The notes below the pieces were generated by a model. That model saw only the letters and a program-made list of their open reading frames with translations. It was not told the DNA's origin and made no database searches. From the NCBI GenBank assembly GCA_021791455.1, contig JAJYWM010000324.1, positions 1 through 32,187 on the forward strand: a stretch of 32,187 nucleotides of DNA, written 5' to 3'. Source of the stretch: a bacterium. Its GTDB lineage: Bacteria > Chloroflexota > Dormibacteria > UBA8260 > Bog-877. The translations under genes and the position numbers were made by a program. The stretch's first letter is position 1, and each line of letters begins with the position of its first letter. Below, piece by piece: positions 11,513 through 32,187 of the stretch.

Positions 11513-11514
11513 AC

Positions 11515-12000
11515 TCAGCTCCCGGCCGCGGACTCTGCCCTGGACAGGACCAGCTCGCGATCGGGCCTGGCAGCGCGGATGTCGCTGGCGCTGGCCAGCG
11601 CGTCGCCCACGCAGGCGAGCAACTGGTCGGCGCGGAATGGCTTGCAGAGGTAGTCGAAGCCTCCTGCCAGCATGTCCATCCGCAGATCTGTGCGGGGCGG
11701 ACGGCCGCTGGTGAAAATCACCGGGGTCCAGCCCCACCCAGCCTTGGCGAGGAGGCGCCGGCACAGTTCGAAGGCACCGGTTTCCACCAGGTTGAGGTCC
11801 AGGATGACGCATGAGAATGGACCTCTGCTGGCGTGGCCGAGCGCGGACCGGGAGGAGTCCGCCTCGACCACGTGAAAATTGAGGCGCTGCAGGATCGCCA
11901 CCGTGGCCGTCCGGGTCAGTTCGTCGCGATCCGCGACCAGGATGGTGCGCTCCTGAGGGGGCCGCCGAATGCCGCGCTGAGGGACCTCTGGAGCTGCCAT
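11515..12000 (-). CDS. Single-domain response regulator receiver
   Basis: This 161-aa protein is a CheY-like receiver with no output domain. The acidic pocket is in LVADRDELTR, the phosphoacceptor is D68 in CVILDLNL, the switch Thr/Ser is in IFTSG, and the conserved Lys is in LCKPF. The last 35 residues are helical with no recognisable DNA-binding fold. No histidine kinase is seen nearby. It is divergent from the secretion operon, and a TAGACT 7 bases before the ATG at 12000 gives a leaderless start. It converges on the penicillin-binding protein with only 2 bp between the stops. A regulatory link to the secretion operon is possible but unproven. Confidence 0.85.
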   Translation of the reverse strand: MAAPEVPQRGIRRPPQERTILVADRDELTRTATVAILQRLNFHVVEADSSRSALGHASRGPFSCVILDLNLVETGAFELCRRLLAKAGWGWTPVIFTSGRPPRTDLRMDMLAGGFDYLCKPFRADQLLACVGDALASASDIRAARPDRELVLSRAESAAGS

Positions 12001-12007
12001 CGGAGCC

Positions 12008-12013
12008 AGTCTA
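12008..12013 (-). promoter_or_regulatory. -10 element TAGACT, leaderless start for the receiver protein
   Basis: TAGACT on the minus strand is followed by GGCTCCG and the ATG at 12000, with no room for a ribosome binding site. This is one of the clearest cases of the pattern in the window. Confidence 0.6.
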
Positions 12014-12034
12014 GGTCGGCTGTCGCGGCCCTGT

Positions 12035-12050
12035 GTGCAAATTTCTGCAC
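12035..12050. promoter_or_regulatory. Inverted repeat GTGCA-N6-TGCAC, possible operator
   Basis: Five-base arms flank the AT-rich spacer AATTTC in the region between the receiver gene and the secretion operon. The AT content stands out from the surroundings. Operator function is a guess from position and symmetry. Confidence 0.3.
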
Positions 12051-12103
12051 CGTTTGGGAGATGCCCTGTAACACCCACGCAACCGCCCACAACGAACGTG
12101 TCG

Positions 12104-12117
12104 CGTCGAATTCGACG
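12104..12117. promoter_or_regulatory. 14-bp perfect palindrome CGTCGAATTCGACG upstream of the secretion operon
   Basis: This is a gap-free palindrome just before the more likely coupling-protein start at 12154. If translation began at 12061 it would instead be coding. It could be a repressor site, but I cannot name the regulator. Confidence 0.35.
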
Positions 12118-12153
12118 ACCACCTCAGAGGTCCGGGCGGACGTCCGCAGGAGA

Positions 12154-13821
12154 ATGCCCAGGAAGAGTCCATCGGCAGGGGGAGAGGGGCTGGCTGGCCC
12201 GGTTGCCACGATAGGCCTGGCCCTTCTAGTGCTTCTGGCCAGACTGGTTAGCCATTCGCGGGCTGGTGGCCTCGCTGCCGACGGCGGTGTGACGGTTGCC
12301 AAGTCAGCCTCGCTGTCCTCAGTGCAGATCGCCGAGCTGGCCCTGGGGACCCTGACGGCGCTAGCGCTGGGAGCCTGGGTCCTCACGCGAAGAGGTCGTC
12401 TGCTGCGCCCGGGGCCGCTGGGCGGGGCCAGACCGGCCCGCAGAGGCGATCTCAAAGACTTCCGCCGCCACCGCGGCCAGGGCACCAGGGTGACATTGGG
12501 AACTCACCTCTGGGGGTCCGTGAACCTTCCTGCCGAGGATCACCTGATGGTGCTCGGCCCCACGGGCTCCGGCAAGTCCAGTGGCCTGGCAATCCCCGCA
12601 ATCCTGGAGTGGCCAGGCGCGGTCGTGGTCACAGACCCCAAGGGCGAACTCATCGAGACCACCATGGCTGCCCGGAGAAGAGTTGGCCAGGTTGCCGTCT
12701 TCGCCCCGCTGATGAGGCCGTCGGACCCGTGGAACCCCCTGTCGGCGGTCCACAGCTCGGAGGACGCGCTGAGGACGGCCGGCTTTCTCATGGGCAGGGC
12801 CCCCGAACGGGAGCCCTTCTGGCATGACCTGGCCCACCAGCTCCTCCAGGGGCTCTTGGTTGAGGCCGCCATGACCGGGATGACCCTCGGCGACCTGGTC
12901 GCGATGCTCCAATCCGTGCCCGCCGAGGAATTGGCGTCCGAGATGGGGCACCCGGTGGCGCGGCGGCTGGTTCAGGGGGCGACGTGCGGCGGTGACAGGA
13001 CCGCCATGAGCGTGGTGGCGACTCTGATCTCGAAGTTGGCCCCGTACGCGACCGACAAGGTGGCCGAGGCAACCGCGCAGAGCTCGTTCGACCCAGCCGA
13101 CCTGGGCCGGCAGAGGCTGCAGACGATCTACTGCCTCGTCACCCCACACGACGCCCCCCTGCTGCGGGGTGTGGTGAGCGCGCTGCTGGCCTCGTGCTGG
13201 AGGGCCATCTACCAATCTCCCCCGCTGACGCCGGTGCTCTTCGTGCTCGACGAGTTCGCCCAGCTCACCCTGCTCCCGGAACTGCCCGCGCTGGTCCAAC
13301 TGGGTCGATCTCAGGGGGTACGCATGATGCTGATGGCACAGGATCTCAGCTCGATCACGGCAACCTATGGGCAGGAGACGTCCACCGCACTCTGGGCCAA
13401 CTGCCGCTGCAAGCTGCTCCTGTCAGGGATCTCGGAGATAGACCTTCTCGAGCGGGTTAGCCGCTTGGTCGGCTCCGCCACTGTGCACAGGCAGCAGCCA
13501 GATGGTCCCGACGAACCGATCAGCTCGCATCCGCTGATCACCCCCGATGAGGTCCGTCGGCTGCGGGATGACAGGGCGCTCCTGCTGCGCGGCAGTGGCC
13601 ATCCGGCGGTCATCCGGCAACGTCGCTGGTACCGGGACCGGCGCCTGCGTGCCCTGGGGCAGCTGCCCCTGGATCCTGGCGCAGTTCCGCGGCCAGTGGC
13701 GGGCAGACCACTGTCTGAGTGGCGAGCGCTGCCCGCCACTCAGGTCAGCTACCCCACGGCCCTGCCCTGGAGCAGCGACTTCAACCCCCTGGAGGAACGC
13801 CCATTGGAGACATCGGCTTGA
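12154..13821 (+). CDS. VirD4/TraG-type type IV coupling ATPase
   Basis: This 555-aa AAA+-type ATPase belongs to the VirD4/TraG/TraD coupling proteins, which recruit substrate to a type IV secretion channel. Two N-terminal membrane spans lie near residues 17-33 and 58-77. Walker A is GPTGSGKS at residues 135-142, followed by VVVTDPKGEL, typical of TraG, and Walker B with its acidic pair is VLFVLDEFAQL with D366 and E367. RSQGVRMMLMAQDLSSI fits motif 3 of the family. ATG at 12061 would add 31 residues; I prefer 12154 because the spans then begin soon after the start and the upstream DNA looks regulatory, though neither has a well-spaced ribosome site. It heads the secretion operon and overlaps the next gene by TTGA. 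Confidence 0.9.
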   Translation: MPRKSPSAGGEGLAGPVATIGLALLVLLARLVSHSRAGGLAADGGVTVAKSASLSSVQIAELALGTLTALALGAWVLTRRGRLLRPGPLGGARPARRGDLKDFRRHRGQGTRVTLGTHLWGSVNLPAEDHLMVLGPTGSGKSSGLAIPAILEWPGAVVVTDPKGELIETTMAARRRVGQVAVFAPLMRPSDPWNPLSAVHSSEDALRTAGFLMGRAPEREPFWHDLAHQLLQGLLVEAAMTGMTLGDLVAMLQSVPAEELASEMGHPVARRLVQGATCGGDRTAMSVVATLISKLAPYATDKVAEATAQSSFDPADLGRQRLQTIYCLVTPHDAPLLRGVVSALLASCWRAIYQSPPLTPVLFVLDEFAQLTLLPELPALVQLGRSQGVRMMLMAQDLSSITATYGQETSTALWANCRCKLLLSGISEIDLLERVSRLVGSATVHRQQPDGPDEPISSHPLITPDEVRRLRDDRALLLRGSGHPAVIRQRRWYRDRRLRALGQLPLDPGAVPRPVAGRPLSEWRALPATQVSYPTALPWSSDFNPLEERPLETSA

Positions 13822-14105
13822 TCATCCTTGCCTCCTTCACCACAGGCCTGGACAACATCATTCACACCGTGACCACCCTGGCACTGGGAGCGGTCGCGGT
13901 CCTGTGCCTCAGCTTCGCAGCCATTCGCTACATGACCTCGCTGGACAACAGCCAGCGGCGGGCGGCCGCGCTACAGGGCCTGGTCACGGTCCTGTTGGGA
14001 GTTCTGCTACTGGTCAACGAGGGGGCGATCCTGAGCTTTGTGGAAGGCCTCTCAGGAAGCAACACCGCCTGCTCCACCAGCAGCTGTTCCTCCAGCACCC
14101 CCTGA
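13818..14105 (+). CDS. VirB2/TrbC-like small membrane protein
   Basis: This protein of about 95 residues has two hydrophobic stretches (IILASF onward through AAIRYM, and GLVTVLLGVLLLV) separated by a short polar loop, then a Ser/Cys-rich tail. Size, topology and place between the coupling ATPase and the VirB6-like gene match VirB2/TrbC-type pilin or pseudopilin proteins. No signal peptidase site is obvious. The start is taken as TTG at 13818, whose TTGA overlaps the coupling-protein stop and has GGAG about 9 bases upstream. An in-frame extension back to 13719 would lie inside the coupling gene and looks unlike a membrane protein. Function is inferred from context. Confidence 0.65.
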   Translation: MIILASFTTGLDNIIHTVTTLALGAVAVLCLSFAAIRYMTSLDNSQRRAAALQGLVTVLLGVLLLVNEGAILSFVEGLSGSNTACSTSSCSSSTP

Positions 14106-16288
14106 GCGCCGGCCGCAGGCTCGCCTGGTCACTGCCGGTGCTGGGCTCCGCGCTGCTCCTTACCTGCTCGGGGAGCCTGGCGTCTCGAGCTGCGCAGGCG
14201 GCGGGGGCCAGACCGATCGCCGCCAGCACCACGTCGCTCACCACCGGCACGGACACCACCCCCCAGGCGACCAGCAGCACGAGCCAGCAGTGCGGGGGTA
14301 TCACCGATCCCTTCTGCTACGTCATGGACGCCTTCGTCTCCGGGCCCGTGGCCATCATGGGCAGCCTTGACGGCAGCCCCGACCCCGATCACATCGATCC
14401 CCTGACGGGTGCCGTGACGACCGGCCCGTGGGCTCTGATAACAACCCTGGTCGGCAGCAATCCGGTGGTCGACAACTACGACGGCAGCCTGGGGGAGCCT
14501 GCCCATGAGTGCGGGCCGGCCGGCTGCATTCCCTGGGTGGAGAGGTTGAACAACATCCTCACCCCGCTTGCTCTGGGCCTGATCGTGCTCGCGTTCGCAG
14601 TCCAGGTGTGCCTGTTCATGGTGGGACAGGAGTTGAACCTGCGCGCCGGGGTGGTTCCGTGTCTGCTGGCGGCCGGAGTGATTGCAGCGGGCCTTCCCCT
14701 GCACCTGGCGGGAAGGGTGATCGATGCCGGGGGGTGGTTGTCCCAGGGAGTCCTGCAGACGACGTTCAAAGAGCTGGGCGCCCATTCCCAACAGCCCCTG
14801 GACATGATGACCGTGCTCGCCATGACCGCCTACTGCCCAGAGGACAGCCCGGTCACGCATCCCGGCATCCACATCTCCGCACCAGGTCCATCCCCGCGAC
14901 AGCAGGTCTTGGTCAAACCATGGATGGACCCGTCTTTCAAGCAGTCCCACTGCATAGCCTCGGACAGCCCTGACTTCACCAAGGAGGTCCTGGACCGCTC
15001 CGAGAACTTCTTCGGCCCACCCCTTCACGACGCCAATTGTGATCGTGGCGACGCGGCCCCGGATCAGCCTCTGTGCACCGACACCGACAACCAGGTGAAT
15101 GCCAATCAGAATCAGGACTGCCTGGAGGGGAGCGGCAGCCCCGACATCGGATCGGAGCAGCTGAACCTACTTCCGCTACCAGGGGAACCGCGGGCAGGCA
15201 ATGGGCAGAGCCCCGCCGACTGTCGCTACGCGGACATCTACTGGGGCACCGTGCCCAGTTTCACGGACGTGTGGAACGGCGTCGGCCCCCATGGGCGCAA
15301 TGGGTATGACGTCCCCGACGGGATTCAGGGGATGGTGGCATTCACCGTCCTCACCCTTCTCGGCCTTTGGCTCGCCCTCACCTACCTGGCCCGCTACATA
15401 GTCCTGGCAATCCTGGCGGCCTGCTCGAGCCTGGCATTTCTGGCGCTGGCGCTTCCGGGCGGCCGCGGTATGTTCAACCGCTACTGGCGCACGGTGGCGG
15501 AACTGTCGGCGGTCGTGGTGATCCAGACCATCATCTTCATCGTCTTCATCGCCGTCGTGTCCACCGTGTCCGGCCTGGCGCCGGTCAGCAACTCGGCAAC
15601 CTGCCCTCTCATCTCCCCGGGGGGCAACCCCAAGTGCGAGGCAGCGGTGGGCGGGCTGCTCGCGCAGGTGGGCAGTGGCAACCCTGGAGATCAGTTCGCG
15701 AAGTGCCTTCTGGCGATCGTGACGGTCTGGCTGATGCTGGAGGTTCCCAAGCGCATCAGCCATGGGGAGATGACCACCTACCGCAGCGTGAAGGGCCTGG
15801 CCACTGCATCGACGGGAGCGCTGCTGAGCGGGGCAATCCTGGCGAAGTCGGCAGCCGGCCCGAGGGCATCGCGCTTCGGGGCCACGCTGAGCCCCGCCGT
15901 TCGATCCGTGACGGGCCTCCCGAGCCGTGCGGACCATGAGTTGGCGAGCCAGATGGAGTCCAGAGAAGCCAGTGGGGAGTCCCGCTGGCCCAGCGTCGAC
16001 GGCCATCAGTCCCGAGAGCACTACATCGGCGCAGCGCTCGTCGCGCGGCCCGCAGCGGCCGCGGAGCTGCAACGCGTGCTGAAGGTCACCCCGGAGGAAC
16101 TCCGCGCCTATCGTGAGGCCGCCAACACGGAGAGCGGCCAGCGGCGCATCGAAGATCTCGGTTCCGACTACGTGAGAGCGGGCGGGCAGCTCACCCACGA
16201 TCTGGACGCGGCGTACCTGAACGCCTTGCGCCGCGGGAAGCTGGCACCTCTGAGGACGGCCAGGGCGGACCAAATCAATAGGCAATGA
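14102..16288 (+). CDS. VirB6/TrbL-like channel protein with Cys-rich loop and signal peptide
   Basis: This 728-aa polytopic protein is the best candidate for the inner-membrane channel of the system. A signal peptide is visible (SAGRRLAWSLPVLGSALLL, cut near ASRAAQA). Hydrophobic spans lie near residues 152-175, 183-204, 411-453 (two), 465-493 and 535-549, followed by a soluble tail of about 170 residues. A large polar segment between spans 2 and 3 holds about six cysteines. The frame has no ATG, GTG or TTG in the right place before the signal peptide. The CTG at 14102 overlaps the previous stop as CTGA, as at every other junction of this operon, so a CTG start is proposed; GTG at 14138 is the alternative. 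The family is inferred from topology and context. Confidence 0.7.
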   Translation: MSAGRRLAWSLPVLGSALLLTCSGSLASRAAQAAGARPIAASTTSLTTGTDTTPQATSSTSQQCGGITDPFCYVMDAFVSGPVAIMGSLDGSPDPDHIDPLTGAVTTGPWALITTLVGSNPVVDNYDGSLGEPAHECGPAGCIPWVERLNNILTPLALGLIVLAFAVQVCLFMVGQELNLRAGVVPCLLAAGVIAAGLPLHLAGRVIDAGGWLSQGVLQTTFKELGAHSQQPLDMMTVLAMTAYCPEDSPVTHPGIHISAPGPSPRQQVLVKPWMDPSFKQSHCIASDSPDFTKEVLDRSENFFGPPLHDANCDRGDAAPDQPLCTDTDNQVNANQNQDCLEGSGSPDIGSEQLNLLPLPGEPRAGNGQSPADCRYADIYWGTVPSFTDVWNGVGPHGRNGYDVPDGIQGMVAFTVLTLLGLWLALTYLARYIVLAILAACSSLAFLALALPGGRGMFNRYWRTVAELSAVVVIQTIIFIVFIAVVSTVSGLAPVSNSATCPLISPGGNPKCEAAVGGLLAQVGSGNPGDQFAKCLLAIVTVWLMLEVPKRISHGEMTTYRSVKGLATASTGALLSGAILAKSAAGPRASRFGATLSPAVRSVTGLPSRADHELASQMESREASGESRWPSVDGHQSREHYIGAALVARPAAAAELQRVLKVTPEELRAYREAANTESGQRRIEDLGSDYVRAGGQLTHDLDAAYLNALRRGKLAPLRTARADQINRQ

Positions 16289-16644
16289 CTCAAGCAGAGG
16301 TTCCCCAACCGATCTCCTCCCTGCCCACGCGCTGGGGCAGTTTCACCGGCCACCAGCTGACCTGGCTGGGACTGGCCGCCGTGCCTCCATATCTCCTCCT
16401 GCGGGCGCATCTCCCGCTGGCAGCGACAGCCCTTGCCACGATCCCGTGGTCACTCGTCGCCACGGTGGTGGCATTTGGCCGTTACCGCGGTCGTCAAATC
16501 GATGACTTTCTCGGGGACTGGGCCCTCTTCCAGATCCATCCGAAGGTCATGGAACACCCTGACTCCAACCTCCTCGCCCCCGAGGTCCAATTCACCGCGG
16601 TTGACTCCCACGGCCTGACCTCCCTGCCGTGGAAGGTGCCATGA
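16285..16644 (+). CDS. PrgI-like type IV secretion membrane protein
   Basis: This 119-aa protein resembles the PrgI/TcpE family of Gram-positive conjugation systems, which always precedes a VirB4 ATPase and is thought to be a small inner-membrane partner of it (a VirB3 counterpart). The typical N-terminus (PQPISSLPTRWGSFTGHQL) is followed by two membrane spans near residues 27-45 and 47-65, then a soluble tail. The ATG overlaps the VirB6-like stop as ATGA, and the stop overlaps the VirB4-like start the same way. A homologue with similar neighbours recurs at 30193. Confidence 0.78.
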   Translation: MTQAEVPQPISSLPTRWGSFTGHQLTWLGLAAVPPYLLLRAHLPLAATALATIPWSLVATVVAFGRYRGRQIDDFLGDWALFQIHPKVMEHPDSNLLAPEVQFTAVDSHGLTSLPWKVP

Positions 16645-18908
16645 CAGCCTCTGTGTTGTCAGGGCGGTCGTCCACCACCAAACTGGTCGACCTGCAGGCC
16701 CTGGACGGCGGCTTCGCGCTCCTGAGCTCCGGAGCGCTGCGTTCGGCCCTGGAGGTCGAGCCGCTGAACCTCGCCCTCCAGGACGATCCTTTCCGCGACC
16801 AGATGTGGCGGCAATACCGACGGGCACTGAGTGCCCTAACCGGGCCCGTGTCCCTCTACTCGCTGACGGCGCCCCTTGCCGGCGAGACGGTAAGCCCGTC
16901 GGCTGCGCCCGTCACCGATTCGGGTCCGTCCTGGTGCGACCGGCGGTTCCGGGCCGATCTGGTGGCGGCTCATCAGATCCAGACCCAGCGGCACTTCTGC
17001 GTCGTGTGGGCCAAGGGTCGCTCGCCCCTTCCCGGGCTTGGGGTGCGCGGTCTTGGGCGGGTGCCTCTCCCCAGACCCTCGGTGGACCTGGAGCAACGCA
17101 GCCGGGCGCTGGAGGCGGGGCTCTCCCGGATCGGGCTCCACGCCAAGCGGCTCGACGACGGGAGCTGGTTTGCAGCTCTGCAGGCCTGTACCGGAGGAAG
17201 AAGCGGGCGCCGGCCGCATGACTTCCCCAGCTGGCTGGCGCCCACCAAGGTGATCGTCGAGGCCGACTCTCTCTGCCTCGACGGGAGATTCTGTCGCAGC
17301 CTGCAGCTTTCTGGCTTCCCCCGGCGGGTGGAGATGGGCTGGCTGGCACCGCTCGTACTGGCGCCGCCCTGCCACATCAGAATGGTTCAGCACGTCTACC
17401 CTCAGGCCAAGCTCGCAAGCCTGGGCCACCTGCGGCGAAGGATCCGCGGCTTTGAGACCAGCCTCCAGGTGGACCGGCTGCGCGGCCACCGTCCTGATCA
17501 AGGCACACGCGCCGCCCTTAGCGACGCCTTGGAGCTGGAGCAGCGCGTCCTCCTGGAGGAGGAACGGCTATTCCGCCTGGGGGTGACGGTCACCGTGGAG
17601 GCGGATTCGCGCAGCGCACTTGAGGACGCCTGGCACTGGGTCCGCGCCATCCTGGCCGAGGTCGGGTGCACCGCTACCCCTCTGACGCACCGCCAGGTGG
17701 ACGGATGGAGGTCAACCCTTCCGCTCGGAATCGACCCGCTCGATTGGAGCCGCGACATGACGGCGGGGGCCCTGGCCACGGCACTTCCCTTCATGAGAGC
17801 TGGATTGCGGGGAGCGGATGGCGCTCTCCTGGGTCCAAGCCTGATCTCCAAGGAGCTGGTGATTGCCGATCCCTTCTCGGCCGCCAACCCAAACTACAAC
17901 ACCATCGTCCTCGGCACGTCCGGCGGCGGCAAGTCGTTCACGGCCAAGCTGCTCGCGGCACGACTGTCCTTGCGCGGGGTGCGGGTCAGGTGCGTCGATC
18001 CCTCGGGAGAGTACCTGGCCCTTGCATCGCTTCTGGGTGGACAGTTCCTTGAGCTGGGCGCGGCACCCGGCTCGGGCCTCAATGTGATGGGACCGGTGCC
18101 AGAGAGCGCGGACCTGGTCGGGGTGGAGCACCGCGCCGCCAAAGTCCTCCCAATCCTGGAACGACTCGCCCGGGGACGGGCCGCAGGGGGCGGCCTCACC
18201 CAGGATGCATTGGACCGGCTCGAGCAGCAGCTCCTGCTGGTGCTCAGAGCTGATCCGAAAGGGGCCCGCCTGCGGGATCTGGTTGAGGCTCTGGAGTCGG
18301 CGGGCATGCCGCTTGAAGCCGCTCGTCTGCGGCGCTTCACCAGCGGGACAGAGCGCGGGTTCTTCGATGGGGAGTCGGCGGTGTTTGCAAGCAACTTCGC
18401 GGCCGTCTCCCTGGCCGAGCTGCAGCGGGACCGGGAGCACCTGCTGACCGCGCTGGTCCACCTCGTCTTGGTCCACCTGGAGGCCGAGCTCTCGCAGAAT
18501 CGAGGCTTGGCCCACCTTCTGGTGGTGGACGAGGCTGAGGTGCTGCTGTCCTCAGAGCGCTCGGCGATGGCCCTGGAGAGTCTCACCCGCCGGCTGCGCA
18601 AGCTCGGCGCCGGCCTCATGGTCATCTCCCAGGTGGTGGAGGACTTCCTCTCGTCACCCGTCGGCAATGTGGTCATCCGCAACTGTCACACCAAAATCCT
18701 CCTCCGCCAGGAAGAGGTGGCGATCCCGGCTCTGCGCCAAGCCTTCGGTTTGTCTTCGGTCGAAGCTGATCTCCTCCTGTCGTGCCCGCCTGGCTGTGGC
18801 CTGATCGTCGTCGGTAGGGAACGTGCCGCCTTCAACGGCGCCGCGCCTCCGGAGTGGGTTTCCGCGCTCTCCACCGATCCCCTCTCCTACCCGCCGAGCG
18901 CACCATGA
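16641..18908 (+). CDS. VirB4-like type IV secretion ATPase
   Basis: This 755-aa protein is the energising ATPase of the secretion system. The N-terminal half (about 400 residues) is the divergent VirB4 N-domain. The C-terminal half has Walker A GTSGGGKS at residues 425-432, VRCVDPSGEYLALASLLGG directly after, and Walker B LLVVDEAEVLL with D630 and E631. The later motif GAGLMVISQVVEDF is the VirB4 sensor region. PrgI immediately before it and a CHAP hydrolase immediately after it give the same order as Gram-positive conjugation modules. The start ATG at 16641 overlaps the PrgI stop (ATGA); a GTG 12 bases upstream is possible. Length is somewhat below typical VirB4. Confidence 0.9.
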   Translation: MTASVLSGRSSTTKLVDLQALDGGFALLSSGALRSALEVEPLNLALQDDPFRDQMWRQYRRALSALTGPVSLYSLTAPLAGETVSPSAAPVTDSGPSWCDRRFRADLVAAHQIQTQRHFCVVWAKGRSPLPGLGVRGLGRVPLPRPSVDLEQRSRALEAGLSRIGLHAKRLDDGSWFAALQACTGGRSGRRPHDFPSWLAPTKVIVEADSLCLDGRFCRSLQLSGFPRRVEMGWLAPLVLAPPCHIRMVQHVYPQAKLASLGHLRRRIRGFETSLQVDRLRGHRPDQGTRAALSDALELEQRVLLEEERLFRLGVTVTVEADSRSALEDAWHWVRAILAEVGCTATPLTHRQVDGWRSTLPLGIDPLDWSRDMTAGALATALPFMRAGLRGADGALLGPSLISKELVIADPFSAANPNYNTIVLGTSGGGKSFTAKLLAARLSLRGVRVRCVDPSGEYLALASLLGGQFLELGAAPGSGLNVMGPVPESADLVGVEHRAAKVLPILERLARGRAAGGGLTQDALDRLEQQLLLVLRADPKGARLRDLVEALESAGMPLEAARLRRFTSGTERGFFDGESAVFASNFAAVSLAELQRDREHLLTALVHLVLVHLEAELSQNRGLAHLLVVDEAEVLLSSERSAMALESLTRRLRKLGAGLMVISQVVEDFLSSPVGNVVIRNCHTKILLRQEEVAIPALRQAFGLSSVEADLLLSCPPGCGLIVVGRERAAFNGAAPPEWVSALSTDPLSYPPSAP

Positions 18909-19576
18909 ACCCCCTGAAGGGAATCGGCGGTATCGCCCTGGCCGGGTGCGCGGTGCCTCTCCTGGTGACCCTCTCCTTGGTCGGCATCATTGGAGCCGGC
19001 GCTGCCGCCGCGGGCTGGCCCAGCGTGGCCGGGATCCTCCCCACTCCGGGTGGCTTCATGCTTCCCGTCGGCCGCGTGATCCTGGCGGGAACCCCCGACT
19101 TCCCGTCCTGGGCCGCGCCTTGCGGGCCGGAGCCAGGGGCGCTGGCCATGGATCCATCCGCGTGCACGGGGCATCCCACTCCGTACCCCTACTCGTACCA
19201 GGGATTCGCCACCGGACAGTGCACCTGGTACGTGGCCACCCGCAGACTGGTCACCTGGCACACGGCGGCCGGCCTGCTGGGGGGAAACGGCGGCCAGTGG
19301 CTGGCGCTGGCCTCCCAGGCCGGCTACGCCGTCGGCTCCAGCCCAGCCGTCGGAGCCATCGCGGTGTTCACCGACCAAGGCGATGGGCATGTCGCCTACG
19401 TGGTCGGAGTCGAGGCCGACGGCGACTACACGGTGGCCGAGGCGAATTGGAGCCTCTATGGGCCGACGGCGCCCTACGTCGACCTGAGAGGCGTGGCGGC
19501 AGATGGCACCGGCAGCCCCGAGGAGCAATTGGCCGGGTTCGTGTATGGCCCCGCTGGCGACCCAGGCGCGACGTGA
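18905..19576 (+). CDS. CHAP-domain peptidoglycan hydrolase of the secretion operon
   Basis: This 223-aa protein has an N-terminal membrane span near residues 10-35, then a linker and a CHAP (NlpC/P60-like) domain. The catalytic Cys is C106 in GQCTWYVATRR and the His is H162 in GHVAYVV, with E179 in AEANW as the likely third residue. Such hydrolases are the VirB1 counterpart in Gram-positive systems and open the cell wall for the channel. Its ATG overlaps the VirB4 stop as ATGA. The CHAP domain is closely similar to that of the separate gene at 23797, including a 22-base identical stretch over the active site. Confidence 0.85.
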   Translation: MNPLKGIGGIALAGCAVPLLVTLSLVGIIGAGAAAAGWPSVAGILPTPGGFMLPVGRVILAGTPDFPSWAAPCGPEPGALAMDPSACTGHPTPYPYSYQGFATGQCTWYVATRRLVTWHTAAGLLGGNGGQWLALASQAGYAVGSSPAVGAIAVFTDQGDGHVAYVVGVEADGDYTVAEANWSLYGPTAPYVDLRGVAADGTGSPEEQLAGFVYGPAGDPGAT

Positions 19577-19584
19577 CGGCCCTC

Positions 19585-19590
19585 TATGCT
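19585..19590 (+). promoter_or_regulatory. -10 element TATGCT, leaderless start for the MFS transporter
   Basis: TATGCT is followed by 7 bases (CTGATCC) and the ATG at 19598. It separates the MFS gene from the secretion operon, whose last stop lies 9 bases upstream. Confidence 0.55.
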
Positions 19591-19597
19591 CTGATCC

Positions 19598-20833
19598 ATG
19601 GAGTCTGGGCCAGCCGTGATCGCGCCCCCCGTGCGACGTCGGCGAGCTCTTGGCTTGGTGGCCGCTTCCCACGCCACTCAGCACATGTACTCCGGCCTTC
19701 TGCCCCTCACCTACCCGGCAATCCTGTTGGCGTTCCATTTGAACTACGCCACCCTGGGCCTGGCGGTCGGGCTGATAGGGGTGGTCGGAGGGCTGACCCA
19801 GGCGAGCGCCGGGTACGTCGGCAGGAGGGTCGCCGCTCGTTGGGTACTCGGATCCCAGAACCTGGTGGTTGGCCTGTGCGCCGTTTTGGGGTCGATGGCG
19901 CCCACCTATCCCCTCTTCGCGACCGGGCAGGGAGTGGCAATCGTTGGCTCAAGCCAGCAGCACCCAGTCGGAAGCTCAGTCGCAGCCAGGACCTACCCCG
20001 AACGCCGGGGAATGGCTCTCAGCCTGACCACCATCGGCGGCAGCGTTGGATCCCTGGTGATCCCAATTCCCGGGGCTCTGATGATCGCCGACCTGGGCTG
20101 GCGGCCCGCACTCCTCATCCTGTCGATCCCCCTCTTTGTGATGGGGATAATTCTGCTGCTCACGTTCCCACCCGTGCCTGGCGAGGACCGCCCCAGGGCT
20201 CACTTCCTAGAACGCCCCAAGCTGCATCTGCCCCGAATCGACAAGAGCCAGTTGATCGACCCCAAGGTCGCCCTCTTCGCCATTCTGGCGTCCACCGTGG
20301 CCGCTGGCGGCCGTGGGCTGGGCACCCTCAACGCCTACATTCCGGTGTACCTGCGGGATGGCGTGCACCTACCTGAGGTGGAGGTCGGCGCCATTTTCAA
20401 CCTGGTGTTGCTGGGAGCGGTCCTGGGCCCACTGCTGGGAGGCTTCCTATCCGACAGGATGGGGCGGGTGCCGGTTCTGTGGGCCGCCTACCTGCTCTCC
20501 GCCGTCACCGTCATCACCTTTGGGCTCGCAGCCCATTTCCCGATCGCCCTGCTGGCCCTGCTGGCGCTCGTGGTGGGCCTGTTCGCGTACGTCGAAAACC
20601 CCCTTCTGCAGGCCTTGTTGAGCGACAGCGTCACCGCGGCTTCCCAGTCGAGCGTATTCGGCATCTACTTCGCCGTGTCCTACGGAATCGGATCCCTGTG
20701 GATCATCGGGCTGGGGCAGGCCATCCAGCACCTCGGTTTCGCCGCCGGGTTCGCCATCATGGCCGGCTCCTATCTGGGAGCTGGGCTCCTCCTGATTCCG
20801 TGCTATCGCTCGGTCCGGACACGCCGTGGCTGA
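19598..20833 (+). CDS. MFS transporter, fosmidomycin-resistance (Fsr) like
   Basis: This 411-aa protein has about 12 hydrophobic spans in two halves with a polar linker near residues 195-225, as in the major facilitator superfamily. The N-terminal HATQHMYSGLLPLTYPAILLAF closely recalls the HFLNDLYQGLLP start of the Fsr group of drug exporters. The second half has the MFS loop GGFLSDRMGRVPV. The substrate is not predictable; Fsr-type proteins export phosphonates or other small molecules. It has its own leaderless-type promoter and is followed by a small coiled-coil gene overlapping by 8 bp. Confidence 0.85.
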   Translation: MESGPAVIAPPVRRRRALGLVAASHATQHMYSGLLPLTYPAILLAFHLNYATLGLAVGLIGVVGGLTQASAGYVGRRVAARWVLGSQNLVVGLCAVLGSMAPTYPLFATGQGVAIVGSSQQHPVGSSVAARTYPERRGMALSLTTIGGSVGSLVIPIPGALMIADLGWRPALLILSIPLFVMGIILLLTFPPVPGEDRPRAHFLERPKLHLPRIDKSQLIDPKVALFAILASTVAAGGRGLGTLNAYIPVYLRDGVHLPEVEVGAIFNLVLLGAVLGPLLGGFLSDRMGRVPVLWAAYLLSAVTVITFGLAAHFPIALLALLALVVGLFAYVENPLLQALLSDSVTAASQSSVFGIYFAVSYGIGSLWIIGLGQAIQHLGFAAGFAIMAGSYLGAGLLLIPCYRSVRTRRG

Positions 20834-21086
20834 CCTCGGAGAGCGAGGTCTGGGGTCGGAGGTGCAGCAGTTGGAGTCCGCCATCTCCGAGGCTCGCTCG
20901 GTCCTGCGACGACTTCAGCGGCTTTCGCAGAAGGTCGCACCGCTGCTAGACGGGGAACTCCACACCTTCGCCTCCGAGTCGGTCGAAGCGGTGGAGCGGC
21001 TGCTGGGGCACATGGAGGAGGCGCGGGCCGAGGAGAGAACCCGCCTCAGGTCACTGCTGCGCCCCCCTGCGGATGAGGACTGCTAG
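20826..21086 (+). CDS. Small coiled-coil protein, unknown function
   Basis: This 86-aa protein is predicted almost wholly helical with heptad-like spacing (SEVQQLESAISEARSV, then RRLQRLSQKV, then VEAVERLLGHMEEARAEE). I do not recognise a family. It starts at a GTG inside the last codons of the MFS gene, with an 8-bp overlap, which points to co-translation with the transporter. It converges on the PH-like gene 26 bp away. Confidence 0.6.
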   Translation: MADLGERGLGSEVQQLESAISEARSVLRRLQRLSQKVAPLLDGELHTFASESVEAVERLLGHMEEARAEERTRLRSLLRPPADEDC

Positions 21087-21112
21087 CGTCTGCCGGGATC
21101 GGTCACTGCCAC

Positions 21113-21700
21113 CTATCCCGTGGGCAATCGACTCGCCGTCGACCAGGTTGAGAGCCCATCCAGCCCGGGTCGCCGACTGGCAATCTGGCCCACCAGGGCG
21201 TCGGCGCTGGCTCGGTCCAAGCGCAACTCGAATCCGGACGGGGCATTCCTGGTCATGGCACGCGCCGCTCGCGACCTGCCTCTGGTCAACTTCCGGATAT
21301 CCATCCGGGAGGATTCGATCTTGAAGACGACGATGCGATTCCCTGGGATGGACACCGCAACGCCGGTCAGGTCCGACCACGGCGCGATCACCGAGCAACC
21401 TCTTGAGATCCTCCTAATTCCCTGATCCCCGAGGAAGACGGCATTGTGCCCCTGCCCGAAGTACGACATCACACCGGCGATCACGGGCCAGGCCTCAACC
21501 ACGACGATCCAAACCGGATCACGGGAGAGCAGGGCCAGGATCACCCCGATTGGCAGGCAGAGGAGACCGAGAGTCCTGGTGACCGACACCGCGGCCCGGC
21601 CCCGCTCGCGCTCCGATGGCCTGATGCGCACCTCAAGCCCAAAGCCGCCGTAGTCTCGAGGCGGCTCAAGTGCTGGCTCGGCCGTCACTTCGGTAGCCAC
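21113..21700 (-). CDS. Membrane protein with PH-like domain, unknown function
   Basis: This 195-aa protein has a polar N-terminus, two close hydrophobic spans near residues 41-60 and 65-80, and a C-terminal beta-rich region (LGDQGIRRISRG, then SVIAPWSDLTGVAVS, then NRIVVFKIES) that looks like a bacterial PH domain. The TSS-to-start distance is set by a TAGGAT 6 bases before the GTG at 21700. It follows ubiA on the same strand with 56 bp between them. No function is proposed beyond a membrane-associated role. Confidence 0.65.
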   Translation of the reverse strand: MATEVTAEPALEPPRDYGGFGLEVRIRPSERERGRAAVSVTRTLGLLCLPIGVILALLSRDPVWIVVVEAWPVIAGVMSYFGQGHNAVFLGDQGIRRISRGCSVIAPWSDLTGVAVSIPGNRIVVFKIESSRMDIRKLTRGRSRAARAMTRNAPSGFELRLDRASADALVGQIASRRPGLDGLSTWSTASRLPTG

Positions 21701-23760: not shown

Positions 23761-23796
23761 CCCCCCTCGTAACGGTCGCGCTATGTGGGAGGACGT

Positions 23797-24768
23797 ATGC
23801 GCGGAGCCCGATGTATTGGGCGTGTCTCGCTTGCGGTCGCGATGGCTGGCATGGTCTGGGTCTCGGCGGTTGCCGGGGCTAGCCTCGACGCCTCAGCCAA
23901 GCAGGGACTAGCCCTCGACAAGGCCCAGCTGAACTCGCTGATCACCCAATTGCAGGCTCAGGGTGATCTGGCGGCGAGGAGCCAGGTCGTGGCCTTGGTG
24001 ACCAAGATCGAGACCGAGCAGAGCTACGTCGCTCAGCTCGACAAGCAGTTGGCGGGGGACCAGGCGACGGCCGCCGTGCTCACCCAGCAGATGACCGGCG
24101 ACAGGACGGCCCTGGTCAGCCTGGTGAGCACGGCCTACGTTGACGGCAACGGCAGCCAGGCCGTTGCCGAGGCTCTGGCCGCCCCCAACATCTCTCAGTT
24201 CTTGGCCAGCTCCACCCTGCCGGCGGCGATTGCCTCTCAGGTCTCGGGACTGGTGGGAGAGATCCGTCACGACCGCCAAGTTGTCGCCACCGACACCGCA
24301 CAGCTCCAGGCGGACGAGAGTCAGGCCATGGCAGCGGAGCAGCAGCTGGGGGTGCAGGCTCAGCAGCTGCTCTCCCAGCTGTCAGCGCCCCAACCGCTGG
24401 TGGGGATCGGTGCCGGAGGATCTGGCAGTTGGTCGTTCGCATACGGCGACTGCACCTGGTACGTGGCCACCCAGCGCAAGGTGACCTGGGGGGGCAACGC
24501 CGACCAGTGGTGGGCGAACGCCGCCGCGGCGGGCTACCTGGAGGGACAGACACCAGAGGTTGGCTCGATTGTCGTATGGGGGCCGGACGTGCCCGGTGAG
24601 AGTTACGGGTACGGGCATGTGGCTTACGTGGAAGCGGTCCAGGGGAATCAGTTCGAGGTTTCCGAGATGAACTTCAGTGGCGTCCCGGGGGGTGGGTGGG
24701 ACAGAGTCGACTATCGATGGGTTCCGGATGGCGCAGGGTACCTGGGTTTCATATACGGCCCGGGTTGA
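23797..24768 (+). CDS. Secreted PcsB/RipA-like coiled-coil CHAP peptidoglycan hydrolase
   Basis: This 323-aa protein has a signal peptide (residues 1-27), a long helical coiled-coil region (about residues 35-195, rich in Gln, Asp and Ala) and a CHAP domain. The catalytic Cys is C219 in YGDCTWYVATQRK, the His is H274 in GHVAYVEA, with E290 likely third. This layout matches PcsB and RipA-type hydrolases, where the coiled coil autoinhibits the enzyme until FtsX or a similar partner engages it during division. ATG at 23797 is preferred over GTG 23785 because GGGAGGA lies just upstream of it. The following gene is a lytic transglycosylase. Confidence 0.87.
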   Translation: MRGARCIGRVSLAVAMAGMVWVSAVAGASLDASAKQGLALDKAQLNSLITQLQAQGDLAARSQVVALVTKIETEQSYVAQLDKQLAGDQATAAVLTQQMTGDRTALVSLVSTAYVDGNGSQAVAEALAAPNISQFLASSTLPAAIASQVSGLVGEIRHDRQVVATDTAQLQADESQAMAAEQQLGVQAQQLLSQLSAPQPLVGIGAGGSGSWSFAYGDCTWYVATQRKVTWGGNADQWWANAAAAGYLEGQTPEVGSIVVWGPDVPGESYGYGHVAYVEAVQGNQFEVSEMNFSGVPGGGWDRVDYRWVPDGAGYLGFIYGPG

Positions 24769-24817
24769 GCTGAGCCTGAGGCCCGAGGCCTCAGCTCGGC
24801 CCACCTCGCTGCCGTTG

Positions 24818-25372
24818 GTGGCCAGTCGCCTACGCTGGCTGATGGCTGCCGTGGCCGTCCTGGTGGTGGCGCCCGTCCTCAGCGTCGCAGCAACTCAGGG
24901 AACGGCGGCCCCGGCGTCCGCCGCCCCGGCCGCGATCAGCAGGATCGCCTTCCAGGCCCGAGCCATCCTGTCGCCCACCAGCTATGAGGTGACGATGCCG
25001 CTCCAGGAGGCCAAGGTGACCCCGCCACCTCCACCTCCACCCGCCGTTTCGGCCAACGCCTCGCTGCCTTACGGCAGCTCCTTCTGGCAGCCGGTGGCCG
25101 AGCCCCCGATCGGGACGATCAAGCAGATCATCTGGGCCGCGGGACAGCGGTACAACGTCTCCTACACCTGGCTCCTGTCCGTGGCAGAGTGTGAGTCCGG
25201 CCTGGATCCCACCGACGTGAACCGATCGTCGGGAGCCAGCGGGCTGTTCCAGTTCATGCCAGCCACCTTCTACGGCCACGGTGGCACCGACATTTGGAAC
25301 CCAACCCAGCAGGCCGATATCGCTGCCAAGATGTTCTCGATCGGAGAGTCCTCGGAGTGGGTGTGCAAGTAG
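24818..25372 (+). CDS. Secreted lytic transglycosylase (SLT-like)
   Basis: This protein of about 184 residues has a signal peptide, a short Pro-rich linker and a C-terminal lysozyme-like domain. AECESGLDPTDVN holds the likely catalytic Glu, and GASGLFQFMPATFYGHGG is the usual SLT block, so it should cleave the glycan strands of peptidoglycan. The start is uncertain. GTG 24818 gives a signal peptide with Arg residues before the hydrophobic core (ASRLRWLMAAVAVLVV). ATG 24842 is 5 bases after TACGCT and fits the leaderless pattern less well. The gene follows the CHAP hydrolase at 50 bp and its stop TAG forms part of the next gene's -10. Confidence 0.8.
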   Translation: MASRLRWLMAAVAVLVVAPVLSVAATQGTAAPASAAPAAISRIAFQARAILSPTSYEVTMPLQEAKVTPPPPPPPAVSANASLPYGSSFWQPVAEPPIGTIKQIIWAAGQRYNVSYTWLLSVAECESGLDPTDVNRSSGASGLFQFMPATFYGHGGTDIWNPTQQADIAAKMFSIGESSEWVCK

Positions 25373-30192: not shown

Positions 30193-30525
30193 ATGTCAGG
30201 GACCACCTTCACTGATTCGTCGCCCCATGAAGAGGTAATCGCCTGGGGCCTGCCGGCGGGCCGTCTCGCCTTGGTCGCCGGCGCGACCCTACTGGCCGCC
30301 GCCTGCCTACATCTCCCGGGGCCGAATCTTGAACGGCTGGCGGCGGGGACCATCACTCTCCTTTGCGGCTGTGGCCTGGGATGGATCCGCGTTCAGGGAG
30401 TTCCCCTGGCGACCTGGGCCCTGAGGGCCACGAGAGCGGTGTGGCGTACCCGGCTTGAGGCGCGGTGCAGCCCCACCCGGTGGCGCTGCGTGGACGAGAC
30501 GACGAGCTGCCCCAGTGGCACCTAG
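30193..30525 (+). CDS. Second PrgI-like type IV secretion membrane protein
   Basis: This 110-aa protein has two membrane spans (near residues 20-41 and 46-67) and a basic C-terminal tail, and stands three bases before a VirB4-like gene, the same pairing as at 16285-18908. A GAGG precedes the ATG by 9 bases. The 153-bp gap upstream contains GC-rich repeats and no clear promoter. Family assignment rests on size, topology and neighbour rather than a strong motif. Confidence 0.65.
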   Translation: MSGTTFTDSSPHEEVIAWGLPAGRLALVAGATLLAAACLHLPGPNLERLAAGTITLLCGCGLGWIRVQGVPLATWALRATRAVWRTRLEARCSPTRWRCVDETTSCPSGT

Positions 30526-30528
30526 GCA

Positions 30529-32187
30529 GTGGCCCCTGAACCAACGCTCTGGCACAGTCACGGCCTCGACATTCTGGATCGGAGTGAGGCGGAGCGGACG
30601 CGCCTCAGGGCGGGATTCACGACCTGGTTGCAGCTGCTGGCCCACCCGCTGACGATGATCATCTGCTGCCGGCGCCGGCCGGAGCAGAGGCCGACGATCA
30701 AGCCCGACGGGAGGGGATGTGCGCGCCGGGAAGCGCCGGCATGTCCTCCTGGTTGTGCTGCCTTCAGCAGGACCACGTACCTTCTGCTCCCTCACCAAGA
30801 CGGTCAGGACGACTTCCGGCTGCTGGCCGCGCTCCAAGCCGCCTGCCAGGTGGAGACGCATGCCGCCACGCGGCTCCCCGCCCTTGGGGAGGGGCCGTGG
30901 TCGGAGCGGTCCCGGGGACTGGTGGTGGGGGGCCGCTGGATATCGTCCTGGAGGATGGCAGGTCCGCCCGGGGTTGAGGTTGACGCCGGGTGGCTCTGGG
31001 ATCTCGTCGGCACGCCGGGAGAGTTCGACCTCGCGATTCGGGTCGTCCCCAGACCGGCGGGGGCCACGGACCGGAGTCTCCGGCGACGGCTGCGGGGCCT
31101 CATGGCTCAGGAGTTGGTGGGTTCGCCCAGCGGCTCCGACCCCCGAGTGGTGGGGGCAGCCCACGCTGTCCGCGAACTGCGCCAGGTGCTAGCCCGAACT
31201 GGCGGTCGGCTGTTCCACGTAGAGATGACCGTGAGCCTGTGCGCTGACTCCGCCGCAGAGGTCAGTGCGCTTGCCGCGGTCTTTCGCACCCGTGCCTCGC
31301 AGCTGCGGATGAAGTGGACCCCGGCATGGTTCGATGAGCTGCCGGCCCGCCTCGAGACTCTCGGGCGTCCGCTTCCCGGCGGGCGGCCACGGTTTCTCAT
31401 GGCCACCGAGGAGGTGGGCACCATGTGGCCGTGGGTCGCGACGACCGAGGCCAGCATCCAGGAGCGCACCGTGCTGGGACGGCACCGGAGGACGGACAGC
31501 CTGGTCACCCTGGACCTGGACCCGGGGACGGGACAGGCCAATGCGAATGTGGCCGTGGTGTCAGCATCGGGAGGGGGCAAGTCCTACCTGGCGGGGCTGG
31601 TCGGGATCGAAGCCGTACGCCGGGGGCAGACCGTCGTCGTCATCGATCCCGAGAACGAGCACGGGAAGTGGTGTTCGGCGGTCGGCGGCGACTACGTGGA
31701 CCTGGCCCGATCCCAGGGGTGCGGATTCAACGCCCTGGAGCTCGGGTCGACGGCTGAGGCGTCCGCCTTGGCCCTGGACCTCGTCGACGTCCTGACCGGG
31801 CCACTGTCCGTTCAGGAGCGCTCTGCTGCGCTGCGGGCGGCCACCCATGTGATCGATTCGTCCGAGCCCCAAAGACCAGGGGTGCTTGGGGATTGCCTCT
31901 CCGCGTTGCGGCAAGAGGAGGGTGGACGCAACCTGGCCGAGAGGTTGTCGCCCTGGGTCCAAGGTGAGGCGGGACTTCTATTCAGCAGCCCGGGGAGGGG
32001 CCCCTCAGTTCGAGCGGTGTGCGTGATCGGGATGAGGGACCTGCCGGAGGGATGGCTCGGCGCGGCCACCTTGCTGGTATCGGCCTGGGTCTGGTATTGG
32101 CTCAAAGCCACCTCCGGCGCGAAGCAGATCATAGTGGACGAGGCCGGCCTGCTCGCGGACGTTCCGGCTCTGCGGAGGTTGATGGCG
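30529..32187 (+). CDS. Second VirB4-like secretion ATPase, 3' end outside window
   Basis: The frame is open from GTG 30529 to the end of the window (553 residues so far). The first 340 residues or so are a divergent N-domain. Walker A is SASGGGKS near residues 345-352, followed by VVVIDPENEHGKWCSAVGG, as in VirB4. Near the window end, IIVDEAGLLADVP is the Walker B with DE. The gene begins three bases after the second PrgI-like gene. It is a paralogue, not a copy, of the VirB4-like protein at 16641, since only the motifs are shared by eye. Its C-terminus and downstream partners are not visible. Confidence 0.87.
   Translation, partial: MAPEPTLWHSHGLDILDRSEAERTRLRAGFTTWLQLLAHPLTMIICCRRRPEQRPTIKPDGRGCARREAPACPPGCAAFSRTTYLLLPHQDGQDDFRLLAALQAACQVETHAATRLPALGEGPWSERSRGLVVGGRWISSWRMAGPPGVEVDAGWLWDLVGTPGEFDLAIRVVPRPAGATDRSLRRRLRGLMAQELVGSPSGSDPRVVGAAHAVRELRQVLARTGGRLFHVEMTVSLCADSAAEVSALAAVFRTRASQLRMKWTPAWFDELPARLETLGRPLPGGRPRFLMATEEVGTMWPWVATTEASIQERTVLGRHRRTDSLVTLDLDPGTGQANANVAVVSASGGGKSYLAGLVGIEAVRRGQTVVVIDPENEHGKWCSAVGGDYVDLARSQGCGFNALELGSTAEASALALDLVDVLTGPLSVQERSAALRAATHVIDSSEPQRPGVLGDCLSALRQEEGGRNLAERLSPWVQGEAGLLFSSPGRGPSVRAVCVIGMRDLPEGWLGAATLLVSAWVWYWLKATSGAKQIIVDEAGLLADVPALRRLMA

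What the first reader, a model, noticed from the sequence alone, without database searches (positions are those of the whole stretch)
12154..19576. Compact six-gene type IV secretion operon with its own wall hydrolase but no relaxase
Coupling ATPase, VirB2-like, VirB6-like, PrgI-like, VirB4-like and CHAP hydrolase are contiguous on one strand. No relaxase, VirB11, integrase or origin of transfer is visible, and the flanks are housekeeping-type genes rather than mobile ones. This suggests a resident chromosomal secretion machine, for protein export, DNA release or contact-dependent transfer, rather than an obvious integrative element. The coupling protein argues for a defined substrate.
Basis: partly seen in the sequence, partly recalled or inferred. 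Interest (0 to 1): 0.7.

Follow-up and report, generated by a model that had tools for sequence, protein, structure and literature searches.

The report
Resident paired secretion system, no relaxase
A group of uncultured bacteria carries, as inherited chromosomal genes rather than cargo of a mobile element, a small cell-to-cell transfer machine (and a second, related one nearby) with no linked gene for the enzyme that starts ordinary DNA mating, so it has probably been put to another use that is still untested.

Summary
Window 12154-19576 encodes VirD4 (coupling ATPase), a VirB2-like pilin, VirB6-like, PrgI/VirB3, VirB4 and a CHAP hydrolase on one strand; four of five junctions are 4-bp ATGA/TTGA overlaps. 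In relatives it continues with a conserved 198-aa protein, a two-helix protein and a TrbL/VirB6.

The host is a Dormibacteria bacterium. All 17 genomes found with VirB4-1 also carry VirB4-2; in the 8 with both on one contig they lie 13-21 kb apart on one strand. For ten taxa, set 1 and set 2 trees are identical (7 of 7 splits) and match neighbouring genes in 6 of 7; dN/dS among three relatives is 0.08-0.24. Set 2's VirB4 is class-wide; set 1 is confined to this lineage. It is a resident machine, not an ICE.

MOBP and MOBQ relaxase profiles hit 0 of 17 genomes; MOBF hits 6 of 17, none at this locus. ComEC, the usual DNA-uptake channel, was not found in these 17 but in 67 of 93 other class members.

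Closest known: Patescibacteria relaxase-less T4SS and archaeal Ced/Ted. Substrate unproven; DNA exchange is my first choice, protein export second.

The parts
12154..13821 (+). VirD4/TraG-type coupling ATPase (T4CP), 555 aa, two predicted N-terminal TM helices
   Evidence: PF02534 178 bits; Walker A GPTGSGKS in 11 of 11 sequences, window included, Walker B LDEFA in 10 of 11 (LDEFT in one); weak sequence matches to solved TrwB and Cag5, E about 1e-6
13818..14105 (+). VirB2-like pilin, 95 aa, two TM helices, TTG start overlapping the T4CP stop (TTGA)
   Evidence: PF18895 23.3 bits, sub-threshold; 79-92% identical to 11 orthologues; 38 database relatives; TM helices
14138..16288 (+). VirB6-like polytopic membrane protein, about 716 aa, Cys-bearing conserved stretch between TM groups and a helical C-terminal region; start codon uncertain
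   Evidence: 65-73% identity across 14 orthologues; TrbL_4 16.4 bits, sub-threshold; TM prediction
16285..16644 (+). PrgI/VirB3-like protein, 119 aa
   Evidence: PF12666 27.5 bits, cut-off 27
16641..18908 (+). VirB4-1 ATPase, 755 aa
   Evidence: PF19044; alignment A1 matches solved VirB4 4ag5/4ag6 at E 1.4e-47; Walker A and B in 13 of 13 sequences, window included
18905..19576 (+). CHAP-1 wall hydrolase (VirB1-like role inferred), 223 aa, one N-terminal TM
   Evidence: PF05257 65.6 bits; CHAP Cys and His motifs in 6 of 6 sequences examined, window included
30193..30525 (+). PrgI-2-like protein, first gene of the second set; no Pfam or NCBIfam hit, called by position, length and similarity to the gene beside VirB4-2 in relatives
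   Evidence: no family; 40% to the G002 gene
30529..32187 (+). VirB4-2 ATPase, runs off the window; in relatives followed by a 198-aa protein, D-aminoacyl-tRNA deacylase (named by eye), a two-TM small protein and a TrbL_4 VirB6
   Evidence: relatives; Walker motifs in 10 of 10; class-wide clade
23785..24768 (+). CHAP-2 (PcsB-like) protein between the two sets; conserved neighbour, membership of the machine not shown
   Evidence: PF05257 67.7 bits; synteny
24677..25372 (+). SLT transglycosylase-like protein beside CHAP-2; membership not shown
   Evidence: PF01464 37.6 bits; synteny

Best explanation
The operon is a resident, vertically inherited type IV secretion system of the kind found in monoderm bacteria (MPF_FATA-like), with no linked relaxase. 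It is kept together with a second, older related set in one lineage of Dormibacteria. Shown by sequence: a coupling ATPase, PrgI/VirB3, VirB4 and a wall hydrolase, with intact ATPase motifs and purifying selection; a pilin and a VirB6 by weaker evidence. Inferred: the VirD4 ATPase feeds substrate to a VirB3/B4/B6 channel, the CHAP enzyme opens the wall, and the VirB2-like pilin forms a contact or conduit structure. Inferred and unproven: the main substrate is DNA passed between cells, either chromosomal DNA made single-stranded by some non-relaxase route or relaxase-bearing elements that lack a VirB4 of their own and borrow this machine.
For: Part identities. Residency: VirB4-1 and VirB4-2 both in 17 of 17 genomes, with no further VirB4 locus once pieces of one gene are merged; order and flanks largely conserved; set 1 and set 2 trees of ten taxa share 7 of 7 splits, 6 of 7 each with eight neighbouring genes; dN/dS 0.12-0.22 (VirD4, VirB6-1, VirB4-1), 0.09 (CHAP-1, one pair) and 0.08-0.24 (set 2), dS as in flanks. 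DNA as substrate: T4CP present in 16 of 17; MOBF relaxases in 6 of 17 genomes, away from this locus; 0 of 9 fetched MOBF regions has a VirB4 by my profiles and these genomes show only the two resident VirB4s; ComEC not found in 17 of 17. [quoted passage not shown]
Against: No relaxase or oriT is linked, and nothing here shows a DNA substrate. DprA, used in transformation, is also missing in 12 of 17 genomes, so incoming DNA would need another recombination route. ComEC was also not found in 26 of 93 class members without VirB4-1, and its absence in this lineage may be one evolutionary event. MOBF elements also occur in 9 of 93 genomes without set 1; 3 of 9 MOBF regions in the 17 have a VirD4-like gene of their own. 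MAG bins drop plasmids, so absence of other VirB4s is weak. No VirB8-like protein was identified. The VirB6-1 model was poor (pLDDT 43).
Confidence: 0.5

Rival explanations
1. The same resident machine exports proteins: the VirD4 ATPase recruits effectors or enzymes that are released or delivered to neighbouring cells, as reported for the Streptococcus suis 89K T4SS.
For: Coupling ATPase with no linked relaxase; a VirB1/B3/B4/B6/D4 set like the one the review describes for S. suis (PMC12857230 section 22); a strongly conserved Cys-bearing stretch of VirB6-1 between predicted TM groups.
Against: No toxin/immunity pair or effector-like gene was recognised among the window ORFs scanned; the flanks look like housekeeping genes; PADLOC gave only ATPase cross-hits.
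Confidence: 0.3
2. DNA import: set 1 took over DNA uptake when this lineage lost ComEC, in the manner of the archaeal Ced/Ted systems.
For: ComEC 0 of 17 against 67 of 93 other class members; repeated with a profile of 13 ComEC proteins from the class, 0 of 18 (the 17 and G240) against 5 of 5 positive controls not in the profile. Ced/Ted are described as domesticated VirB2/B4/B6 DNA transfer systems (PMC9905601, passages).
Against: In the passages seen, Ced/Ted have no VirD4-type coupling protein among their named parts, whereas set 1 does; DprA is mostly missing too; ComEC not found in 26 of 93 genomes without VirB4-1; single lineage, so the association has n=1.
Confidence: 0.12
3. It is a decaying or incomplete ICE/IME: a conjugative module that lost its relaxase and integrase and persists as a remnant, or one whose relaxase lies further out.
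For: Its best NCBIfam hits are conjugative families (CD1110, CD1115); MOBF relaxases exist elsewhere in 6 of 17 genomes, in G001 on the same contig about 74 kb away.
Against: ATPase motifs intact, dN/dS 0.12-0.22, same place and order in the relatives covered, tree congruence, no tRNA, only weak, chance-like direct repeats, and on 72,556 plasmid records only distant VirB4 relatives, the best rows at 29-35% identity and none covering 80% of VirB4-1.
Confidence: 0.06

Closest known systems
Patescibacteria (CPR) relaxase-less T4SS, MPF_FATA class (PMC12102498)
   Same: Chromosomal, widespread in the group, VirB4/PrgI/VirB6/T4CP and VirB2-like pilins, relaxase mostly absent, function other than classical conjugation proposed (abstract and passages).
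   Different: VirB4-1 and VirB4-2 do not group with the 13 Patescibacteria VirB4s in my tree. These hosts have assemblies of 1.9-3.7 Mb, against typically under 1 Mb for Saccharibacteria (review section). Here two sets co-occur, and set 1 has one pilin gene, not an array.
Archaeal Ced/Ted DNA exchange systems (PMC9905601)
   Same: Domesticated chromosomal VirB2/VirB4/VirB6 systems without relaxase; Ted loci commonly carry MinD/ParA-like ATPases (passages), and some other Dormibacteria have a PrgI-like protein with a MinD-like part beside VirB4-2 (L160, L171; read by eye).
   Different: Set 1 has a VirD4-type coupling ATPase, a PrgI and a wall hydrolase. Sulfolobales or Thermoproteales sequences were not compared here.
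CD1110/CD1115-family conjugative T4SS of Gram-positive elements
   Same: Best NCBIfam hits of VirD4 (CD1115, 145 bits) and VirB4-1 (CD1110, 183 bits).
   Different: Both lie below the family cut-offs (250 and 325 bits); no linked relaxase or integrase; vertical inheritance.
Streptococcus suis 89K island T4SS
   Same: Reported VirB1, B3, B4, B6, B8, D4 set with protein export in a Gram-positive (PMC12857230 section 22).
   Different: That system lies on a pathogenicity island and has VirB8; no VirB8 was recognised and no island seen here.

Membership tests
Type IV secretion system, monoderm (MPF_FATA-like) | VirB4 ATPase with intact nucleotide-binding motifs | tested here: met
Type IV secretion system, monoderm (MPF_FATA-like) | VirD4/T4CP coupling ATPase | tested here: met
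   PF02534 178 bits; 16 of 17 lineage genomes
Type IV secretion system, monoderm (MPF_FATA-like) | PrgI/VirB3 | tested here: met
   PF12666 27.5 bits against 27, marginal
Type IV secretion system, monoderm (MPF_FATA-like) | VirB6 polytopic channel protein | tested here: inconclusive
   set 1: TrbL_4 16.4 bits, sub-threshold, model too poor to compare; set 2 protein of a relative passes at 37.3 bits
Type IV secretion system, monoderm (MPF_FATA-like) | VirB1-like wall hydrolase | tested here: met
   CHAP domain, 65.6 bits
Type IV secretion system, monoderm (MPF_FATA-like) | VirB8-like protein | tested here: inconclusive
   no such hit among genes scanned; divergent VirB8 would be missed
Type IV secretion system, monoderm (MPF_FATA-like) | Host envelope is monoderm | not tested
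   no envelope markers were examined
Integrative and conjugative element | Relaxase linked to the T4SS | tested here: not met
   none among 32 window ORFs by Pfam; MOBP PF03432 0 of 17 and MOBQ PF03389 0 of 17 genomes; MOBF in 6 of 17, in G001 on the same contig about 74 kb away, otherwise on other contigs. MOBV, MOBT, MOBC and MOBH were not searched in whole genomes
Integrative and conjugative element | Integrase and att sites bounding an element | tested here: not met
   no integrase among the window ORFs scanned, no tRNA, no convincing flanking repeat in 11000-21200, where 20 of 37 repeat families were listed
Integrative and conjugative element | Patchy, phylogeny-incongruent distribution | tested here: not met
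Patescibacteria T4SS clade | VirB4 inside the Patescibacteria clade | tested here: not met
   13 Patescibacteria VirB4s form their own clade in a quick tree
Ced/Ted DNA exchange system | Demonstrated intercellular DNA transfer without relaxase | not testable with these tools
   needs living cells

The most novel reading that the evidence does not exclude
In this Dormibacteria lineage a chromosomal, pilin-bearing type IV secretion system has replaced the ComEC transformation route as the resident way of exchanging DNA between cells. It would be a bacterial counterpart of archaeal Ced/Ted with a coupling ATPase added, working beside a second class-wide T4SS of unknown role, and relaxase-only elements would ride on it.
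Probability: 0.15. Interest if true: 0.85.

Novelty: new variant of a known kind. Interest (0 to 1): 0.6.

Why it matters
A review dated 31 December 2025 (PMC12857230; section 22 read, other passages seen; [quoted passage not shown] This locus is a candidate further case, in bacteria with ordinary-sized genomes and with a defined coupling ATPase. The paired, co-inherited sets and the missing ComEC turn 'what does a resident relaxase-less T4SS do' into specific predictions. In the held library, 'Dormibacter' with 'type IV secretion' gave two papers, with 'VirB4' one, and 'Dormiibacter' with 'secretion system' none; PMC12102498 names Dormibacterota once, as a relative of the CPR, and PMC12640132, a soil resistome study, was seen only in the listing. 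A description in a paper not held could exist.
Full report
What is there. The window is 65-72% GC per kilobase and comes from a Dormibacteria genome: of the ten VirB4 relatives that bear an organism name, nine are called Dormibacteria, Dormibacteraeota or Dormiibacterota and one Acidoferrales. That the class lies in Chloroflexota is recalled from GTDB. No whole genome is held for the window, so genome-wide statements are about relatives. On the + strand, VirD4 (12154-13821), a VirB2-like pilin (13818-14105), a VirB6-like protein (14138-16288), PrgI (16285-16644), VirB4 (16641-18908) and a CHAP protein (18905-19576) follow each other. Four of five junctions are 4-base overlaps, one TTGA and three ATGA. 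VirD4, VirB4 and CHAP are firm by profile; PrgI is marginally over its cut-off; the pilin and the VirB6 are below theirs.

A second set was missed. At 30193-30525 and from 30529 to the window's end lie a second PrgI-like gene and a second VirB4-like ATPase. In relatives this set continues with a 198-aa protein without a Pfam family, a D-aminoacyl-tRNA deacylase (named by eye), a two-helix protein of about 80 aa and a VirB6 that passes TrbL_4 at 37.3 bits. The window's own contig probably carries the 198-aa protein too: the database entries of VirB4-1 (P0001) and of a member of that family (P0070) both list a longest contig of 172,066 bases.

Residency. A profile of 33 VirB4-1 relatives found 17 genomes with VirB4-1 in the GTDB collection, 8 titled Candidatus Dormiibacterota and 9 titled only 'bacterium' (best 80 of 449 places kept; L047 is a second piece in one of the 17). 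In the class of G001 no further genome scored above 351 bits, against 918 or more for the 17. All 17 have a second VirB4 locus and no third, once pieces of one gene are merged (G001, G004 and G013 show three or four pieces). Profiles show the second locus to be VirB4-2 in 17 of 17, nine and eight; VirB6-2 follows in 16 of 17, the contig of G007 ending inside VirB4-2. In 8 of 17 both VirB4s lie on one contig, same strand, 13 to 21 kb apart; in 9 they are on different contigs. T4CP is found in 16 of 17, not in G004.

Order and neighbours (fumarase, penicillin-binding protein, response regulator, the operon, an MFS transporter, HemE, CHAP-2 and SLT, a peptidase, an enolase-like enzyme, set 2) largely agree where contigs cover them. 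Exceptions: no MFS gene was matched in L011, FolB was matched in 5 of 9 relatives, and G002 has about 5 kb more before PrgI-2. Concatenated trees of ten taxa gave identical topologies for set 1 and set 2 and 6 of 7 shared splits with eight neighbouring genes, the difference lying within G008/G010/G012 at low to middling support. Pairwise dN/dS among G008, G010 and G012 was 0.12-0.22 for VirD4, VirB6-1 and VirB4-1 and 0.08-0.24 for VirB4-2, VirB6-2 and the 198-aa protein, against 0.04-0.29 for most neighbours (u195 0.33, deacylase up to 0.32); dS was alike. ATPase motifs are intact in the sequences examined. There is no tRNA, no integrase among 32 window ORFs scanned and no convincing flanking repeat.

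Age of the two sets. In the class search 98 of 110 genomes have a VirB4-family match. In a tree of 127 VirB4s, VirB4-1 is one clade of 18 with the window, and VirB4-2 forms one clade of 33 with VirB4s of other class members. In 11 of 20 neighbourhoods from other class members the 198-aa protein lies beside VirB4-2. So VirB4-2 is the older, class-wide one; set 1 belongs to the window's lineage. VirB6-2 was not seen in those 20 neighbourhoods, so whether set 2 is complete there is unknown. In some (L160, L171) the PrgI-like protein carries a MinD-like part, read by eye. The pilin is the most conserved part of set 1: 79-92% identity to the window in 11 orthologues, against 65-73% for VirB6-1 in 14 and 43-65% for VirB4-1 in the 17.

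Relaxases and competence. MOBP (PF03432) and MOBQ (PF03389) profiles matched 0 of 17 genomes. MOBF (PF08751) matched 6 of 17 and 9 of 93 other class members. Of nine MOBF regions fetched, three have a VirD4-like gene and none a VirB4 by my profiles; several carry ParA- or resolvase-like genes, judged by eye from a listing that was cut. Since these genomes show only the two resident VirB4s, such elements may need a channel in trans; this is inference, and MAGs lose plasmids.

ComEC (PF03772) matched 0 of 17 but 67 of 93 others. With a profile of 13 ComEC proteins from the class it matched 0 of 18 genomes (the 17 and G240, which I place in this lineage only from its position in the listing) and 5 of 5 positive controls outside the profile. 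DprA (PF02481) matched 5 of 17 (one weakly, G016) against 89 of 93. So the lineage seems to have lost the usual transformation route. That fits a swap to set 1, but equally a loss with no link: 26 of 93 others show no ComEC and have no VirB4-1, and the lineage may be one event.

What it most likely does. Shown: a conserved, selected, resident T4SS with coupling ATPase and wall hydrolase, and no linked relaxase. Inferred: a channel for passing a substrate out of the cell. DNA is first because nearly all known Gram-positive T4SS functions are DNA translocation (PMC12857230 section 22) and because relaxase-bearing elements without VirB4 live in some of the same genomes; protein export is second, with the S. 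suis system as the reported precedent (same section). DNA import in the manner of Ced is the boldest reading.

Comparison. The Patescibacteria T4SS (PMC12102498; abstract and passages seen) is the closest in kind: chromosomal, relaxase mostly absent, VirB2-like pilins. It is not the same clade. Archaeal Ced/Ted (PMC9905601; passages) is the closest in idea. The 2025 review says VirB2 and VirB5 are not found in Gram-positive T4SSs apart from Patescibacteria (passage); the Dormibacteria pilin would be a further case if its identity holds and if Dormibacteria are monoderm, which was not tested here. NCBIfam's nearest model to the pilin, a pilin-like conjugal transfer protein family (Mbov_0395), scored 19 bits against a cut-off of 40. 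I rate this a new variant of a known kind.

Noticed in passing
window 30193-32187, and L133, L136 beyond: Second PrgI-VirB4 pair; in relatives followed by a strongly conserved 198-aa protein (invariant DETD stretch) with no Pfam family and weak ferredoxin-like matches for its N-terminal half; function unknown.
   Followed up: partly
G001-G017 (relatives): ComEC not found in any of the 17 genomes with set 1, and DprA not in 12 of 17, while 67 and 89 of 93 other class members have them.
   Followed up: partly
L186-L194 (G001, G002, G008, G010, G014, G017): MOBF relaxase regions, three of nine with a VirD4-like gene and none with a VirB4, in genomes whose only VirB4s are the two resident ones.
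   Followed up: partly
L160, L171 (other Dormibacteria): PrgI-like protein with a MinD/ParA-like ATPase part beside VirB4-2, recalling the MinD/ParA genes of archaeal Ted loci.
   Followed up: no
window 23785-25372: A PcsB-like CHAP protein followed by an SLT protein, conserved between the two T4SS sets; could serve the machines or ordinary cell-wall turnover.
   Followed up: no
L193:13460-16420: Reading frames with a recurring 'LQWGHGLAAVET' peptide, perhaps a CRISPR-like or other short repeat array read as protein.
   Followed up: no
G172, G234, G239 (other Dormibacteria): MOBF relaxases in genomes with extra VirB4s; in G172 one contig (C13) carries relaxase, VirB4 and T4CP within about 55 kb, which looks like a real ICE.
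   Followed up: no
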